Origin: Maribacter thermophilus
Lineage (GTDB): Bacteria; Bacteroidota; Bacteroidia; Flavobacteriales; Flavobacteriaceae
Reading direction: 5' to 3'
Assembly: GCF_001020565.1 (NCBI RefSeq)
Contig: NZ_LDAS01000001.1
Location: forward strand, 2,194,520 to 2,258,519
DNA: 64,000 nt
Part shown: positions 37,192 to 44,155 of the stretch, one piece after another
Numbering within the stretch: position 1 is the stretch's first letter
How the letters are laid out: each line of letters opens with the position of its first letter
Program-made: the position numbers and the translations under genes
Notes under the pieces: model-generated
Databases searched by the model: none
The model's input: the letters and a program-made list of their open reading frames with translations, nothing else
What the model was told of the DNA's origin: nothing

Positions 37192-40041
37192 ATGAAGACT
37201 GACGTGTTTGCATCCCGACATATTGGAATAAGAGAGGAAAACCTCCAACACATGCTAGAAACTGTATCCGCAGATAGTTTGGAACAGTTGATTTTTGAAA
37301 CAATACCGGATGATATTCGATTAAAAGAGCCCTTAGACCTGGAAGCTCCCATGAGCGAACATAGATTCTTGGCACACCTTGAGGCCCTATCCAAAAAAAA
37401 TAAAATTTTTCGCTCTTATATCGGTCTAGGATACCACGAAAGTCTTACGCCGTCAGCGATCAAAAGAAATATTTTAGAAAACCCGGGATGGTACACGGCC
37501 TATACCCCCTACCAGGCCGAAATAGCGCAAGGCAGGCTAGAAGCCTTGTTAAATTTTCAAACAATGGTATCGGATCTTACCGGAATGGAAATGGCCAATG
37601 CTTCGTTATTGGATGAAAGTACAGCGGCAGCCGAAGCCATGACCATGCTCTTTGACCTTCGCTCAAGAGATCAGAAAAAAAATAACATTGTTAAATTTTT
37701 CGTATCCGAAGAAGTATTGCCCCAAACCATATCGTTACTTAAAACAAGAGCACTACCATTGGGTATTGAGCTTGTTATAGGTAATCACGAGGAGTTCAAA
37801 TTTGGTTCCGATTTTTACGGCGTCTTGTTACAATATCCTGGTAAATATGGCCAAATTTATGATTACTCCTCTTTTGTAGACAAGGCAAAGGAAGCTGACA
37901 TAAAAACCGCCGTTGCTGCAGATATTTTAAGTTTGGTATTATTGACACCACCGGGTGAATTTGGCGTAGATGTGGTCGTAGGAACTACCCAGCGCTTTGG
38001 AATTCCGCTAGGTTACGGAGGGCCACATGCCGCTTTTTTCGCTACCAAAGAAGCATATAAAAGAAACATACCCGGTAGAATTATAGGTATCACCAAAGAC
38101 AAGGACGGCAAACCAGCTTTGCGAATGGCCTTACAAACCCGCGAACAGCACATAAAAAGAGACAAGGCCACCTCCAATATATGCACCGCCCAGGTATTAT
38201 TGGCTGTTATGGCAGGTATGTACGCTGTATACCACGGACCAAAAGGACTCAGATATATTGCCAACAAGGTACACGCAACCACCAAAACTTTGGCCGATTC
38301 TTTAGAAAAACTAGGTTACTATCAACTTAATACTTCTTATTTTGACACCGTGGTAATAAAAGCGGATGCCAATGTAGTTAGGCCAATTGCAGAAAAAGAA
38401 GAGGTCAATTTCTTATATATAGACGCAGAAACCATTTCAATTTCTATAAACGAGGCAACCTCTATAAAAGACCTTAACCAGATCATTTCCATTTTTGCAA
38501 AAGCCAAAGAACAGGAAAGCATACAGGTTGATGGGCTATTGAACGAATCTGCTATTTTAGATCAAGTAAGACGTACATCGCCATTTTTAGAAAATAAAGT
38601 ATTCAACAGTTATCATTCAGAAACAGAACTAATGCGTTACATCAAAAAACTGGAACGTAAAGATTTGTCTCTGAACCATAGCATGATTTCTTTAGGAAGC
38701 TGTACCATGAAATTAAATGCCGCTTCTGAAATGCTGGCATTAAGCAGCGCCAGTTGGGGAAACATACACCCATTTGTACCCGTAGAACAAGCGGAAGGTT
38801 ATCAAATTGTTCTAAAGGAGTTGGCAAAGGACCTATCTATAATCACAGGCTTTTCCGATACATCTTTACAGCCAAATTCTGGTGCTCAAGGTGAATACAC
38901 CGGTCTAATGGTAATTAGGGCATATCACAAATCTAGAGGAGAAGAACATAGAAATATCTGTATCATACCCGCATCTGCACATGGTACCAACCCGGCATCT
39001 GCTGTAATGGCCGGAATGAAAGTTGTAGTCACCAAAACGGATGAAAAAGGAAATATTGATGTTTCTGACCTTGAAGACAAGGTAAGACTGCACGCCGACA
39101 ATCTTGCCGCCTTAATGGTTACATACCCATCAACACATGGTGTTTTTGAATCTTCCATTAAACACATTACAAAATTGATTCATGACCACGGAGGGCAAGT
39201 GTATATGGATGGTGCCAATATGAACGCCCAGGTAGGATTAACCAATCCTGCAACCATCGGCGCAGATGTATGCCACCTAAATTTACACAAGACATTCGCT
39301 ATACCCCATGGTGGTGGCGGACCTGGCGTAGGCCCTATTTGTGTGGCTCCTCAGTTAGCACCGTTCTTACCGGGCAACCCTGTAATTAAAACTGGTGGCG
39401 AAAAAGGCATAACAGCTGTCTCCGCAGCACCTTGGGGAAGCGCCCTTGTATGCTTAATATCTTACGGATATATAAAAATGTTAGGTTTGGAAGGTTTAAC
39501 GCAATCTACCAAAATAGCCATATTGAACGCCAATTATATAAAACATCGTTTAAACGGAAAATTCGATGTTCTCTATAGTGGCGAAAAAGGTAGGGCCGCC
39601 CATGAAATGATTATCGACTGCAGGCCATTTAAACAAAATGGCATTGAAGTTACAGATATAGCAAAACGCTTAATGGATTATGGTTTTCACGCCCCAACGG
39701 TATCTTTTCCAGTAGCAGGAACGTTAATGATAGAACCTACGGAAAGTGAAAGCCTAGAAGAACTGGACCGCTTTTGCGATGCAATGATATCTATAAGAAA
39801 AGAGATTGACCAAGCAGTAGCCGAAGACCCTAACAACGTGCTTAAAAATGCTCCGCATACCATGGATATGGTTACCAACGACACTTGGGAATTTCCGTAC
39901 AGCAGACAGCAGGCCGCTTTTCCTTTACCATACGTTTCAGAAAATAAGTTTTGGCCATCGGTACGTAGGGTGGATGATGCTTATGGAGACCGTAATTTAA
40001 TATGCACCTGTACCCCTATTGAAGCATATGTAGAAGCATAG
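37192..40041 (+). CDS. gcvP: Glycine dehydrogenase (decarboxylating), P-protein
   Basis: 949 residues, the full-length single-chain form. The PLP Lys is Lys700 in NLHKTFAIPHGGGGPG (coded at 39289-39291), followed by the phosphate-binding Gly run. Other family marks are RHIGIREENLQHML at the start, GYGGPHAAFFATKE in the N-terminal half, and SLGSCTMKLNAASEM and NSGAQGEYTGL in the C-terminal half. It decarboxylates glycine and transfers the aminomethyl group to the lipoyl H-protein. The T- and H-protein genes are not in this window. A terminator follows 93 bases after the stop. Confidence 0.97.
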   Translation: MKTDVFASRHIGIREENLQHMLETVSADSLEQLIFETIPDDIRLKEPLDLEAPMSEHRFLAHLEALSKKNKIFRSYIGLGYHESLTPSAIKRNILENPGWYTAYTPYQAEIAQGRLEALLNFQTMVSDLTGMEMANASLLDESTAAAEAMTMLFDLRSRDQKKNNIVKFFVSEEVLPQTISLLKTRALPLGIELVIGNHEEFKFGSDFYGVLLQYPGKYGQIYDYSSFVDKAKEADIKTAVAADILSLVLLTPPGEFGVDVVVGTTQRFGIPLGYGGPHAAFFATKEAYKRNIPGRIIGITKDKDGKPALRMALQTREQHIKRDKATSNICTAQVLLAVMAGMYAVYHGPKGLRYIANKVHATTKTLADSLEKLGYYQLNTSYFDTVVIKADANVVRPIAEKEEVNFLYIDAETISISINEATSIKDLNQIISIFAKAKEQESIQVDGLLNESAILDQVRRTSPFLENKVFNSYHSETELMRYIKKLERKDLSLNHSMISLGSCTMKLNAASEMLALSSASWGNIHPFVPVEQAEGYQIVLKELAKDLSIITGFSDTSLQPNSGAQGEYTGLMVIRAYHKSRGEEHRNICIIPASAHGTNPASAVMAGMKVVVTKTDEKGNIDVSDLEDKVRLHADNLAALMVTYPSTHGVFESSIKHITKLIHDHGGQVYMDGANMNAQVGLTNPATIGADVCHLNLHKTFAIPHGGGGPGVGPICVAPQLAPFLPGNPVIKTGGEKGITAVSAAPWGSALVCLISYGYIKMLGLEGLTQSTKIAILNANYIKHRLNGKFDVLYSGEKGRAAHEMIIDCRPFKQNGIEVTDIAKRLMDYGFHAPTVSFPVAGTLMIEPTESESLEELDRFCDAMISIRKEIDQAVAEDPNNVLKNAPHTMDMVTNDTWEFPYSRQQAAFPLPYVSENKFWPSVRRVDDAYGDRNLICTCTPIEAYVEA

Positions 40042-40134
40042 ACATCACCATAACCATTGTAAACATTGACTTTTGGCCAGATCAGAACCTACAGAGGCTC
40101 ATATAGCCAAAAAACAATGAACTCTGAACATCGT

Positions 40135-40171
40135 AAAACTTGTTATGCATGCATAACAAGTTTTGTTTTTT
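40135..40171 (+). terminator. Palindromic terminator after gcvP
   Basis: The 30-base perfect palindrome at 40135-40164 (arms AAAACTTGTTATGCA and its complement) has no spacer at the dyad and is followed by GTTTTTTATT. It separates gcvP from the KAS III unit that starts at 40208. Confidence 0.8.
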
Positions 40172-40207
40172 ATTATAACTTTTACACTCTAATCATGACA
40201 AAAGCAT

Positions 40208-41263
40208 ATGAGTGTAAGTATTACCGGTACAGGTAGCTATATCCCCACCAACACTATAGAAAATATAGCTTTTATAAACAATACATTTTTAAACAACGAT
40301 GGCAGCAAATTTCCTCAAAGCAATGATGTGATCATTCGCAAGTTTGAGGCTATCACAGGCATTAAGGAAAGAAGATATGTCACCAATGACCTAAACAATT
40401 CTGATATCGCGTTTATAGCTTGCGAAAAAGCCATAAAAGATGCGGGCATAAACAAGGAAGAAATAGACTATATTATTTTTGCACATAACTTTGGCGACGT
40501 CTCCTACGGGCAATCGCAAAGTGATGCCGTACCCAGTTTGGCATCTCGTGTTAAACACAAACTTAAAATCAAAAACCCGAAATGCGTTGCCTATGATATG
40601 CTTTTTGGGTGTCCGGGATGGATAGAAGCCGTAATTCAGGCAAATGCTTTTATAAAAAGTGGTATTGCAAAAAAATGCCTGGTAATCGGAGGGGAAACAT
40701 TATCCAGATTAACAGACCCTTATGACCGTGATTCTATGATTTATGCCGATGGGGCCGGTGCAGTCATTATAGAAAAAACGAATGACGGTAACGGCATTTT
40801 GGCCCATAACAGCGCTTCGTTCACCTACGAAGAAGCCTACTTCCTATTTAACGGAAATAGTTATAATAAATCTGAACAGGACACCAAATACATTAAAATG
40901 TTCGGGCGTAAAATCTATGAGTTCGCCTTAACGAATGTTCCCCAAGCCATGGCAGACTGCCTAAAGCAAAGTGGCGTCGACATTACCGAAGTAAAAAAAA
41001 TACTTATACATCAGGCCAATAAAAAAATGGACGAGGCAATCGTCGAGAGGTTTTATGGACTGTATGAAATGGAAGCTCCAAAGGACATTATGCCCATGAC
41101 AATTGAAAAACTGGGCAATAGCTCCGTGGCTACCATCCCGACCCTATTGGACCGTATTTTAAACGGAAAAATAGAAAATCACCATCTAGACAAGGGCGAT
41201 GTTATTATATTTGCAAGTGTTGGCGCAGGAATGAACGTCAATGCAATCGTTTACAGAATCTAA
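40208..41263 (+). CDS. Beta-ketoacyl-ACP synthase III (FabH)-like protein
   Basis: 351 residues. The catalytic triad is complete: Cys135 in LFGCPGW, His268 in LIHQANK and Asn304 in LGNSSVATIP. The glycine-rich end GAGMNVNAIVYRI is typical. It differs from housekeeping FabH in having a longer N-terminal insert (residues 25-45) and TRP-poor substrate loops, and stands in a cluster with a methyltransferase and a glycosyltransferase, not with fabD, fabG and acpP. The likely reaction is condensation of an acyl-CoA or acyl-ACP starter with malonyl-ACP for a special lipid or polyketide. It starts a three-gene unit with the next two genes. Confidence 0.88.
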   Translation: MSVSITGTGSYIPTNTIENIAFINNTFLNNDGSKFPQSNDVIIRKFEAITGIKERRYVTNDLNNSDIAFIACEKAIKDAGINKEEIDYIIFAHNFGDVSYGQSQSDAVPSLASRVKHKLKIKNPKCVAYDMLFGCPGWIEAVIQANAFIKSGIAKKCLVIGGETLSRLTDPYDRDSMIYADGAGAVIIEKTNDGNGILAHNSASFTYEEAYFLFNGNSYNKSEQDTKYIKMFGRKIYEFALTNVPQAMADCLKQSGVDITEVKKILIHQANKKMDEAIVERFYGLYEMEAPKDIMPMTIEKLGNSSVATIPTLLDRILNGKIENHHLDKGDVIIFASVGAGMNVNAIVYRI

Positions 41264-41264
41264 A

Positions 41265-41795
41265 ATGTACGAAAACAGTTTTCCGAGCAAAAGATTTAAA
41301 CATACCCTCGATTTTTTAAAGAAACACGTTTCGCCCAACGAGCGGATTTTAGACTTAGGAGTAGAAAACCCTCTCTCTAAGATCATGCGGTCTGAAGGCT
41401 ATTCGACAGAAAACACAAAAGGAGAGGATTTGGATAAGGACTTTTCATCGGTTTTAAACTCGGATGCCGACGTCGTTACCGCTTTTGAAATCTTTGAACA
41501 TCTTTTGGCGCCTTTGAACGTACTATCACAGATCAAAGCAAACAAGTTAGTGGCCAGTATTCCCCTTCGATTATGGTTCTCACCGGCATACAGAAGCAAA
41601 ACAGACCCATGGGACCGTCATTACCATGAATTTGAAGATTGGCAGTTTAACTGGCTTCTAGAAAAAGCCGGTTGGGAAATAAAGGAAACTAAAAAATGGA
41701 CCCATCCTGTTAAAAAAATAGGTTTTCGGCCTTTTCTAAGGTTATTTACCCCTAGGTATTATATCGTGTACGCCATCAGAAAAACCGACAATTAA
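41265..41795 (+). CDS. SAM-dependent methyltransferase (class I)
   Basis: 176 residues from ATG 41265, one base after the KAS III stop; an in-frame ATG at 41241 would overlap that gene. Motif I is RILDLGVENPLSK, unusual in having V-E-N where GxG is common. The post-motif region has VVTAFEIFEHLLAPLNVL, typical of methyltransferase type 11/12 folds. WDRHYHEFEDWQFNWLLEKAGWEI follows in pieces. The substrate is unknown. Position between KAS III and glycosyltransferase suggests it methylates a lipid or sugar intermediate. Confidence 0.82.
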   Translation: MYENSFPSKRFKHTLDFLKKHVSPNERILDLGVENPLSKIMRSEGYSTENTKGEDLDKDFSSVLNSDADVVTAFEIFEHLLAPLNVLSQIKANKLVASIPLRLWFSPAYRSKTDPWDRHYHEFEDWQFNWLLEKAGWEIKETKKWTHPVKKIGFRPFLRLFTPRYYIVYAIRKTDN

Positions 41796-41804
41796 AGGTT
41801 TAAA

Positions 41805-42659
41805 ATGGACTACTATGTTATTATTCCGGCACATAACGAGGAGACCTTTATAGGGCTAACCCTCGATAGTATCTTAAAACAAACACTTCGCCCCAAACAA
41901 GTAATCGTTGTCAACGACAATTCTACGGATAATACAGAAAAAATTATTGACGAATTTGCTTCTACCCACCCATTCATTACAAAATTAAACACGGCATCCT
42001 CTACTCTTCATATGCCGGGGAGCAAAGTTATAAACGCCTTTAAAAAGGGATTGGAATTATTGGATGACAACTTCGCATTTATCGTAAAACTGGATGCCGA
42101 TATCATCTTACCTAACAACTATTTTGAAAAAATAGCCCATGTTTTTAAAGGAAGACCACAAATTGGTATTGCCGGTGGGTTTATATATGAGAAAGACAAC
42201 GAGGGTGCCTGGGTACTAAATCATCCTATGAACAAAGACCATATCAGAGGGGCCATTAAGGCATACTCCAAAAATTGTTTTAAAGCCATAGGAGGGCTTA
42301 AAAATGCCATGGGATGGGATACGGTAGACGAGCTTCTGGCACAGCACCATGGATTTGAACTTTACACCGACGATACTTTAAAAGTAAAACATTTAAGACC
42401 TACCGGAAACGCTTACGACCCCAAGGCAAAACTTTTACAGGGAAAAGCCATGTACACCATGCGCTATGGTTTTTGGATAACCTTTATAGCATCTTTGAAG
42501 ATGGCCATCAAAAATAAAAAGCTACAAGCCCTATCCGATAACATGTACGGTTACTTTGAAGCCCAAAAAGAAAAAACCCCTTTTCTAGTTTCCGTCCAAG
42601 AGGGTAAGTTCATAAGAAAGCTTCGTTGGAAGAATATTAAACAAAAAATTATTGCATAA
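41805..42659 (+). CDS. Family 2 glycosyltransferase
   Basis: 284 residues. The GT-A fold is clear: VIIPAHNEETFIGLTLDS, IVVNDNSTDNTEKI, and the metal DxD in VKLDADIILPNNYFEK. The acceptor region includes AMGWDTVDELLAQHHG, with an ED-like motif, and KVKHLRPTGNAYD. It lacks transmembrane helices. It probably transfers a sugar (or a similar nucleotide-linked unit) to the product made by the upstream KAS III gene. It is the last gene of the unit, followed by a strong hairpin. Confidence 0.9.
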   Translation: MDYYVIIPAHNEETFIGLTLDSILKQTLRPKQVIVVNDNSTDNTEKIIDEFASTHPFITKLNTASSTLHMPGSKVINAFKKGLELLDDNFAFIVKLDADIILPNNYFEKIAHVFKGRPQIGIAGGFIYEKDNEGAWVLNHPMNKDHIRGAIKAYSKNCFKAIGGLKNAMGWDTVDELLAQHHGFELYTDDTLKVKHLRPTGNAYDPKAKLLQGKAMYTMRYGFWITFIASLKMAIKNKKLQALSDNMYGYFEAQKEKTPFLVSVQEGKFIRKLRWKNIKQKIIA

Positions 42660-42692
42660 AAAAACCATTCCTTTTTTAGGAATGGTTTTTTA
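42658..42692. terminator. Bidirectional terminator between the glycosyltransferase and skp genes
   Basis: AAAACCATTCCT (42661-42672) and AGGAATGG followed by T6 form a stem with a short T-rich loop. A-run upstream and T-run downstream mean it can serve the glycosyltransferase gene (+) and the first skp gene (-), which converge here. Confidence 0.85.
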
Positions 42693-42717
42693 AATCGTTG
42701 TTTCTTTTATCTATCTC

Positions 42718-43227
42718 TTAGAAACCTAATTCTTTCTTTACGTCCGCTAAAAGGTCTTTTCCTTTTGCTACGATAAGACCACCGCCAGCTTGCGAATCGA
42801 TTACATAATCAAATCCTTGTTCGGCAGCAACCTTTTCTATGGCCGCTTTTGCCTTTTCCGATATCGGAGCGAACAGTTCGGCCTGTTTCTTTTGAAACTC
42901 TTGCTGAGCCGCTTGCTGTGCCTCTCCTATGTTCTTTTCATAACCTTGAAGTTCTGCTGCTCTTTTGTCGTTCTCTTCTTTAGATTTAGAAGCTGCCTCG
43001 TTCTGATACTGTGTAAATTTATTACGCAATTCGGTCATGGAAGCTTGTATATCGGCATTATATGTTTCTTGAAGTTTTTTAAGCTCTGCTTCAGCGGCTT
43101 TCATTTCAGGCATGGCAGATAATAATTGTGTAACATCTATATGAGCTACTTTACTCTGCGCATTAACAAAACTGGTCGCCGCCACGAACAACATTAAGGC
43201 TACCGCAATTTTCTTTACTTGTTTCAT
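42718..43227 (-). CDS. OmpH/Skp-family periplasmic chaperone (first copy)
   Basis: 169 residues. The signal peptide (VALMLFVAATSFVNAQ) is followed by KVAHIDVTQLLSAMPEM, the usual Skp opening, and a long Ala/Glu/Lys-rich coiled coil (residues about 45-120: EMKAAEAELKKLQET, SKSKEENDKRAAELQGYEKN). The C-terminal part AAIEKVAAEQGFDYVID returns to the core. Skp trimers hold unfolded outer-membrane proteins with their coiled-coil arms and deliver them to BamA, whose gene is third upstream. The order bamA, skp, skp is usual in Flavobacteriia. Confidence 0.93.
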   Translation of the reverse strand: MKQVKKIAVALMLFVAATSFVNAQSKVAHIDVTQLLSAMPEMKAAEAELKKLQETYNADIQASMTELRNKFTQYQNEAASKSKEENDKRAAELQGYEKNIGEAQQAAQQEFQKKQAELFAPISEKAKAAIEKVAAEQGFDYVIDSQAGGGLIVAKGKDLLADVKKELGF

Positions 43228-43291
43228 GAGTTAAAATTTAATTCTTATTTAAGTATTAATTAATGGTTATTGATTTTACTGATTATTCTGG

Positions 43292-44155
43292 TTAATTGTT
43301 ATTATCGTTTTCATTATTTCCTTCTCCTTCATTCTCCTGGCTTTCCTCTTCCTCATTATCATCTTTCTTTCTCTCTTCTAATTTCGCTTTGCGTTTTGCC
43401 TCTCTTTCTTCCAATAATTTTTTTCTTCGCTCCTCATAGGCCTTTTTTCTTTCTTCCCTTAACTTAAGCTGCTCTTCTCTCTTTTCACTTGCCGTTTTTT
43501 CCCTGGCTTCCTCCGCTTCTTTTGCCTTATCTATCCTCTCTTGCAAAGCTTCGCTAATTTCCTCTTCGTCCTCAAAATTATCCAATTCACTTTTAGTGTT
43601 ATTTTTTTGTTTTGGCTTGCTTATTTTTCTGGTTCTTGCAATACCTCTCAACACTAAATCACTAATATCGTGCCTTTTTTCGGAATACAACATTACAACA
43701 TCCGCAGATTTATCAAAAATAAAATCATATTTTTTATTTGCACCCAATTTTTGCACTTCGTTGAACACTTGGTCCTGTATTGGCTGTATCAATCTTCTTT
43801 TCTGCAGTACCAAATCTCCTTGTGGCCCAAACCTGTCTTGCTGATACTCTATCATCTCCCGCTCCAAAATTTGGATCTCTTCTTCTCGTTCCTCAATAAG
43901 TTCTGGGGTAAGCAACACTTTTTCCGCCATTAAATCTTTCTTCATTTGCTCGACCACACTTTGCTTCTGCTCTATCTCTATCTTCCATTTTTGTACTTTG
44001 GCCTCTAGTTGCTCACTAGCCTCACGGTACTCTTCAACATTTTGCAGTATATATTCCATATCCACATAACCTATTCGCACACCTCTTTGAGCTGACGCAT
44101 ACACCCCTATAATTACGGTAACAAGAAATATAAGAACTTTTGTTTTTGACTTCAT
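43292..44155 (-). CDS. OmpH/Skp-family chaperone with charged C-terminal tail (second copy)
   Basis: 287 residues. The signal peptide (TVIIGVYASAQ) and RGVRIGYVDMEYILQNVEEY are typical of OmpH. The Skp coiled coil spans about 45-130 (ASEQLEAKVQKWKIEIEQK), then the core returns with VQKLGANKKYDFIFDKSADVV. The extra 110 residues have no counterpart in the first copy: a highly charged, possibly single-helix Arg/Glu/Lys region (REERKKAYEERRKKLLEERE) and an Asn/Glu-rich end (EGEGNNENDNNN). It lies between bamA and the short copy, so it probably serves the same path. Confidence 0.9.
   Translation of the reverse strand: MKSKTKVLIFLVTVIIGVYASAQRGVRIGYVDMEYILQNVEEYREASEQLEAKVQKWKIEIEQKQSVVEQMKKDLMAEKVLLTPELIEEREEEIQILEREMIEYQQDRFGPQGDLVLQKRRLIQPIQDQVFNEVQKLGANKKYDFIFDKSADVVMLYSEKRHDISDLVLRGIARTRKISKPKQKNNTKSELDNFEDEEEISEALQERIDKAKEAEEAREKTASEKREEQLKLREERKKAYEERRKKLLEEREAKRKAKLEERKKDDNEEEESQENEGEGNNENDNNN

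What the first reader, a model, noticed from the sequence alone, without database searches (positions are those of the whole stretch)
40208..42659. Isolated KAS III / methyltransferase / glycosyltransferase unit bounded by two terminators
A KAS III with a full Cys135-His268-Asn304 triad, a small methyltransferase one base downstream, and a GT2 enzyme 9 bases further form a compact unit. A palindromic terminator lies before it and a strong hairpin after it. There are no other fatty-acid genes. This could be a small pathway for a modified or glycosylated lipid or a ketide product. No known product matches it from what I can see.
Basis: partly seen in the sequence, partly recalled or inferred. 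Interest (0 to 1): 0.6.

Follow-up and report, generated by a model that had tools for sequence, protein, structure and literature searches.

The report
Leucine-linked ketoacyl synthase in Flavobacteria
A widespread but uncharacterised fatty-acid-starting enzyme in marine Flavobacteria carries the same short DNA switch as the leucine-making genes, which suggests it starts branched fatty acids, while the two genes beside it look more like separable neighbours than partners.

Summary
The KAS III is not housekeeping FabH: it misses the curated FabH cut-off (197.9 against 292.1 bits), which two other proteins of the genome pass, and it sits in its own clade, found in 92 of 395 Bacteroidota genomes. 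KAS-methyltransferase-GT2 order is conserved in Flavobacteriaceae (62 of 72 loci; tight in 45), but gcvP is also conserved upstream (59 of 66, less tightly: 21 of 66 within 350 bp). Elsewhere KAS usually stands alone and the other two genes sit in other contexts, so a dedicated three-enzyme pathway is weakly supported. New here: a 12-nt element (TTGAACATCGTA) precedes KAS, mostly by 78-96 bp, in 21 of 80 named loci, and the same element precedes leuC in many relatives and the leucine operon of this genome. In nine genomes 14 of 27 matches sit in promoter position, 11 of them before KAS or leuC; the reversed pattern gives 0 of 24. Best reading: a leucine-co-regulated KAS III that primes branched-chain acyl chains. 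Regulator and substrate are untested.

The parts
40124..40135 (+). 12-nt element CTGAACATCGTA, one mismatch from TTGAACATCGTA, 84 bp before the KAS start codon; also found before leuC
40134..40165 (+). palindrome/hairpin whose core TATGCATGCATA is kept in several relatives; T run follows at 40166
40208..41263 (+). KAS III-type beta-ketoacyl synthase, 351 aa, triad C135/H268/N304; own clade, below FabH cut-offs
41265..41795 (+). small class I methyltransferase-fold protein, 176 aa, with LDLGxxNP in place of the glycine-rich motif I
41805..42659 (+). GT2-family glycosyltransferase, 284 aa
42659..42691 (.). bidirectional hairpin between GT2 and the convergent OmpH gene
37192..40041 (+). gcvP (glycine decarboxylase; named from its sequence by recall), conserved upstream neighbour, presumably unrelated
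42718..43227 (-). OmpH/Skp-like gene, convergent neighbour in Maribacter-like loci

Best explanation
The KAS III is a non-housekeeping beta-ketoacyl synthase of Bacteroidota. In many marine Flavobacteriaceae its operon is controlled together with the leucine operon through a 12-nt element upstream of the gene. Most likely it condenses a branched-chain-amino-acid-derived acyl group (isovaleryl, or another leucine- or isoleucine-derived unit) with malonyl-ACP to start branched acyl chains, and is switched with the supply of those amino acids. The methyltransferase and the GT2 are co-transcribed neighbours that act on surface glycans or another target rather than on the KAS product. Shown here: clade, triad, shared element. 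Inferred: operon, regulator, substrate, product.
For: Own clade, 28 rows, support 100/99, apart from the two groups that hold the two FabHs of this genome. FabH model TIGR00747: 197.9 bits (cut-off 292.1) against 388.7 and 363.9 for the two paralogues. Intact triad. 12-nt element: 0-2 mismatches within 250 nt before KAS in 21 of 80 named loci, against 37 of 1600 shuffles; the same element exact before leuC in 6 of 24 leuC genes and as TTGGGYATCGTA in 5 more. In 9 genomes 14 of 27 exact matches to YTGRACATCGTA are intergenic with a start codon within 150 nt: 5 KAS, 6 leuC, 1 leuA, 1 EamA-like transporter, 1 symporter-like gene; the backwards control under the same rule gives 0 of 24. Variant TTGGGYATCGTAW: 4 of 8 hits intergenic, all four before leuC. 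In this genome the operon is leuC-leuD-citramalate-synthase-like-leuB, and of its other three hits one is KAS... one lies about 205 bp before an acyl-CoA ligase-like gene and two lie in reading frames. The 300 nt before the two FabHs hold nothing closer than 4 mismatches.
Against: 59 of 80 named loci, many of them Flavobacterium, lack the element within 250 nt of KAS. Two genomes with the KAS element lack it at leuC (G103, G198), and 13 of 24 leuC genes lack both forms. KAS is kept in 8 of 32 genomes without a leuC match at E <= 1e-60. The genome already has two FabHs that could start branched chains. Substrate class rests on regulation alone; no regulator was identified; total motif counts are not above control (27 against 24; 20 against 19). 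The promoter-position rule was set after seeing the hits. In the tree, solved FabHs of other phyla lie between, so the clade may be a long-branched part of the wider FabH radiation; the tool warned of a long-branch row (L273) next to it. Neighbours of KAS outside the family show no fatty-acid theme.
Confidence: 0.4

Rival explanations
1. KAS III, MT and GT2 form one short pathway that makes a methylated, glycosylated lipid or ketide.
For: Conserved order in 62 of 72 Flavobacteriaceae loci, tight in 45 of 72, KAS-MT gap up to 350 bp in 53 of 62 (closer than gcvP-KAS, 21 of 66), gaps of 1 and 9 bases in the window; of 41 same-family genomes in the draw KAS is found in 41, MT in 37 (one a remnant), GT2 in 36.
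Against: gcvP synteny is also strong (59 of 66); no overlap of KAS and MT genomes outside the family; MT kept without GT2 (G107, G312) and GT2 without MT (G057); inserts of over 1 kb between KAS and MT in 9 of 62, some on the other strand; MT beside YfhO/GT4 elsewhere.
Confidence: 0.15
2. KAS III is a divergent spare FabH that primes ordinary fatty acids from a short acyl-CoA; neighbours and the shared element reflect ancestral synteny and general growth control.
For: FabH fold (best Z 41.6, 306 residues aligned, 1.9 A); FabH models are its best family hits; solved FabHs are its nearest non-Bacteroidota rows in the tree; isolated gene in most non-family loci read.
Against: Long separate branch, misses curated FabH cut-offs, two true FabHs already present; the Trp of the DxWI block replaced and an eight-residue insert ahead of the active-site Cys.
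Confidence: 0.3
3. KAS III makes an acyl substituent for a surface glycan, to which MT and GT2 also contribute.
For: Three same-class loci place KAS directly after a SIS/CBS (KdsD-like, by recall) gene and a mannose-1-phosphate guanylyltransferase gene (L126, L127, L146); a related gene is also a few genes from KAS in 36 of the 79 Flavobacteriaceae loci tabulated (cluster c8); MT and GT2 contexts include glycan loci.
Against: No acyltransferase or ACP seen beside it; the other non-family loci show no glycan theme.
Confidence: 0.1

Closest known systems
FabH (beta-ketoacyl-ACP synthase III, TIGR00747)
   Same: Thiolase fold, Cys-His-Asn triad, up to 34% identity to solved FabHs
   Different: Below the curated cut-off, separate clade, lacks the Trp of the DxWI block, longer N-terminal and pre-Cys loops, stand-alone or beside gcvP
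BioZ (3-oxopimeloyl-ACP synthase)
   Same: Same fold, Z 39.7
   Different: 24-25% identity; biotin context not tested
DarB/StlD ketosynthases of flexirubin and dialkylresorcinol clusters
   Same: KAS III superfamily; the genome has another KAS III-type protein in a separate ketosynthase/ACP cluster (L247; DarB label by recall)
   Different: No match to NF053539 or NF005293 at E <= 0.001
NmbA, N-methyl-bacillithiol synthase (PMC12719100: abstract, section 2.1, first parts of sections 2.3 and 4; PMC6282198: passages)
   Same: SAM-dependent class I methyltransferase reported as common in Flavobacteriaceae
   Different: CtNmbA has 266 residues, a Cap domain and VLDIAxGxG; the window protein has 176 residues and LDLGVENP; sequences not aligned
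FpgA, GT2 of Flavobacterium psychrophilum (PMC4293000: abstract, section on the locus, passages)
   Same: GT2 of a flavobacterium affecting glycosylation and gliding
   Different: 319 aa, paired with FP1637 rather than with MT; sequences not compared

Membership tests
FabH (TIGR00747) | Score above curated cut-off 292.1 bits | tested here: not met
   197.9 bits; five clade relatives 165.9-197.0; paralogues 388.7 and 363.9
FabH (TIGR00747) | Groups with the Bacteroidota housekeeping FabHs in a tree | tested here: not met
   28-row clade 100/99 apart from a 10-row (83/70) and a 9-row (100/100) FabH group; three solved FabHs lie between
FabH (TIGR00747) | Cys-His-Asn triad | tested here: met
   C135, H268, N304
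FabH (TIGR00747) | Condenses acyl-CoA with malonyl-ACP | not testable with these tools
   needs enzyme assay
DarB/StlD | Match to NF053539 or NF005293 | tested here: not met
   absent from the 19 families at E <= 0.001, although the two FabH paralogues hit them below cut-off
BioZ | Use of glutaryl-CoA; biotin context | tested here: inconclusive
   fold match only
NmbA | About 266 aa with Cap domain and GxG motif I | tested here: not met
   176 aa, LDLGVENPLS; NmbA features; no phmmer hit in PDB at E <= 0.1, though it is not known whether 9RI2 is in that copy
Class I SAM methyltransferase | Rossmann-like fold | tested here: met
   AlphaFold mean pLDDT 79.4; Foldseek best 3cc8 E 2.7e-7; Pfam Methyltransf_23 24.2 bits, below its cut-off 27
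Class I SAM methyltransferase | Glycine-rich SAM motif I (GxGxG) | tested here: not met
   LDLGxxN-type block in the aligned relatives; SAM binding is therefore unproven
GT2 glycosyltransferase | PF00535 above cut-off | tested here: met
   76.5 bits, cut-off 23.3

The most novel reading that the evidence does not exclude
Flavobacteriaceae have a small, undescribed regulon, marked by TTG(A/G)(A/G)(C/T)ATCGTA, that couples branched-chain amino acid synthesis (leuC operon, leuA) to a new class of KAS III that sets branched-chain lipid initiation, possibly with an acyl-CoA ligase.
Probability: 0.35. Interest if true: 0.68.

Novelty: new variant of a known kind. Interest (0 to 1): 0.48.

Why it matters
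Flavobacterial membranes are rich in iso-branched fatty acids (recalled), but I found no description of how amino acid supply is tied to branched-chain initiation in this phylum in the library searched (listings). A conserved KAS III, outside FabH and sharing a promoter-proximal element with leuC, makes that link directly testable.

Tried and rejected
NmbA (bacillithiol N-methyltransferase) for MT: wrong length and motif. FpgA for GT2: different size and neighbours. Bacteroidota O-glycosylation loci: nothing matching the unit in the passages read (PMC12871550). Rfam on 39000-43500: seven hits up to E 5, all far below their gathering scores. A leader peptide read from the 12-mer (NIV...MHA-stop in several Maribacter-group leaders): noticed by eye, not seen by eye in leuC leaders, left open. 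sigma-70-type scan: 7 sites against 13.1 in shuffles. Family enrichment around isolated KAS genes: only small local groups in the 25 families shown. Papers on such a KAS III unit or on a flavobacterial leucine motif: none seen in the listings.

Rows dropped or chosen: MT alignment A2 used 28 of the 34 sequences first listed; one had a stop codon and five more were left out. The neighbour set used 123 of 124 proteins; one was left out in typing. In one search, 27 of 28 chosen KAS upstream regions passed the rule and L071 fell out; the 28 were picked mostly because they already showed the element, so the unbiased figure is 21 of 80. The leuC figure is 11 of 24, misses included. The 12 loci were chosen because they carry the element. 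L147 gave no KAS under the gene caller. The KAS tree used 56 rows and left out further KAS-clade hits.

Full report
What is there. The window belongs to a 4.05 Mb genome; among the 80 named loci kept, the closest KAS III is that of Maribacter sp. MMG018 (95% identity). KAS III, MT and GT2 lie at 40208-41263, 41265-41795 and 41805-42659 on the + strand between gcvP and a convergent OmpH gene. The triad C135-H268-N304 aligns with the two FabHs of the same genome and is invariant in an alignment of 27 sequences. Both hairpins fold much better than shuffles.

The KAS III is not housekeeping FabH. Its best curated models are FabH-type, but it misses their cut-offs (TIGR00747 197.9 against 292.1; PRK09352 214 against 249). 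Two other FabH-like proteins of the genome pass both. One of these (L153) lies in a plsX/rpmF/accB/accC-like order, judged from gene sizes and recall only. In a tree of 56 proteins the window protein falls in a 28-row clade (100/99), apart from a 10-row group (83/70) and a 9-row group (100/100) that hold the two FabHs. Three solved FabHs of other phyla lie between, and the tool warned of a long-branch row beside the clade, so it may be a fast-evolving part of the wider FabH radiation. Five other clade members also miss the FabH cut-off (165.9-197.0 bits). The model has the FabH fold (Z 41.6 to 2ebd). Against the two FabHs it lacks the Trp of the DxWI block and has inserts near the N terminus and before the active-site Cys. 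That the FabH Trp stacks on CoA is recalled, not tested.

Distribution. A phylum draw of 395 genomes gives 92 with KAS at E <= 1e-60: 41 same-family, 8 same-order and 43 more distant; no same-family or same-order genome appears among the misses listed (20 of 303 shown, nearest kin first). Outside the family the gene mostly stands alone. Pfam families among 123 of 124 near neighbours show no lipid theme beyond small local groups: three ubiE neighbours, and three loci with nucleotidyltransferase/ManC and SIS/CBS genes.

Is it a unit? In named Flavobacteriaceae loci with at least 4 kb downstream, MT and GT2 both follow KAS in 62 of 72, and with both gaps up to 350 bp in 45 of 72. gcvP precedes KAS in 59 of 66 loci with at least 5 kb upstream, in 21 of 66 within 350 bp, because a small globin-like gene (named by recall) often lies between. 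KAS and MT are over 1 kb apart in 9 of 62, some with an opposite-strand gene between. MT occurs in 54 of 390 genomes: 37 same-family (one a remnant) and 17 others, none of which has KAS at the threshold; with 51 and 17 genomes an overlap of zero has a chance of about 0.065, so it shows no positive link rather than exclusion. In four distant genomes and one same-family genome MT directly follows a YfhO-type gene; in a second same-family genome it is one gene away. In six genomes of one other family it follows menB-menA (YfhO, menB and menA tested on one or two members, the rest by clustering). The two same-family YfhO-linked MTs branch just outside the KAS-linked ones, in a clade of 20 with 99/96. 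This genome has a YfhO-GT4-flippase cluster without MT in it. GT2 is found in 46 of 390 genomes: 36 same-family, 6 of 8 same-order (not beside KAS in the loci read) and 4 distant; in several loci it lies near a flippase-like gene (weak Pfam match, below cut-off) and a FkbM methyltransferase gene. I conclude that MT and GT2 are more likely glycan-related neighbours than partners of KAS. The menaquinone context of MT remains unexplained.

The regulatory clue. Upstream of KAS a 12-mer TTGAACATCGTA is conserved (window 40124-40135, one mismatch). Of 80 named loci 10, 6 and 5 have 0, 1 and 2 mismatches within 250 nt, against 0, 3 and 34 of 1600 shuffles. In twelve loci chosen because they carry it, the motif columns average 97% majority base and the flanks 48% (printed before the script failed). 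Searched exactly as YTGRACATCGTA in nine same-family genomes it has 27 matches; 14 are intergenic with a start codon of an ORF of at least 100 aa within 150 nt, namely KAS 5, leuC 6, leuA 1, an EamA-like transporter 1 (below its curated cut-off) and a symporter-like gene 1 (by recall). The reversed pattern has 24 matches, none in such a position. The rule was written after the first look at the hits, but was applied alike to both. A further EamA site in G226 overlaps the end of the upstream gene and was not counted. Of the four genomes without an exact KAS site, two have TTGGGC(A/G)TCGTA. Flavobacterium leuC genes carry TTGGGYATCGTAT; in eight genomes the four intergenic matches of that variant are all before leuC and the other four lie in reading frames. 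Over 24 leuC genes, 11 have one form or the other and 13 have neither. In this genome the element precedes leuC-leuD-citramalate-synthase-like-leuB; another hit lies about 205 bp before an acyl-CoA ligase-like gene, two lie in reading frames, and the 300 nt before the FabHs lack it. Whole-genome counts are not above control (20 against 19 at one mismatch), so the evidence is position and recurrence, not number. Two genomes have it at KAS but not at leuC, most named loci lack it at KAS, and KAS persists in 8 of 32 genomes without a leuC match.

Interpretation. A KAS III outside FabH, sharing a promoter-proximal element with leucine biosynthesis, most likely initiates acyl chains from a branched-chain amino acid product. 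This is an inference from co-regulation; substrate, regulator and product were not tested. The literature library yielded no description of this KAS III or of the element (search listings only).

Noticed in passing
L220 9224-12161, L221, L245 6082-11539: A YfhO-type membrane protein and GT4 glycosyltransferases form a cluster in three same-family genomes (with a flippase-like gene in the own genome); two of them carry the MT there instead of beside KAS.
   Followed up: partly
L207, L212-L215, L219: In one distant family the MT relative directly follows menB-menA (tested on L207), with a menC-like gene (by recall) on the other strand; role unknown.
   Followed up: partly
L086 8494-8871 and similar Flavobacterium loci: A small globin-like gene (named by recall, not searched) sits between gcvP and KAS in many Flavobacterium.
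   Followed up: no
L078 and L084: The gcvP reading frame appears in pieces in two Flavobacterium records (F. covae, F. davisii); in L084 it also runs off the locus edge.
   Followed up: no
L382 3578-5203: An acyl-CoA ligase-like gene of the own genome has a TTGGACATCGTA match about 205 bp upstream; conservation in relatives not tested.
   Followed up: partly
L381 4418-5929: The leu operon of this genome holds a citramalate-synthase-like gene (670 bits, cut-off 950) between leuD and leuB.
   Followed up: partly
L247: A ketosynthase/ACP/dehydratase-like cluster with a DarB-like protein, possibly for an aryl polyene or flexirubin-type pigment (labels by recall).
   Followed up: no
window 40124-40155 and relatives: The 12-mer and following palindrome can be read as a short reading frame NIVxxxMHA-stop in several Maribacter-group genomes; not seen by eye in leuC leaders.
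   Followed up: partly
G095: A same-order genome shows no close match to the L153-type FabH (best 38% identity) but carries two copies of the KAS clade.
   Followed up: no
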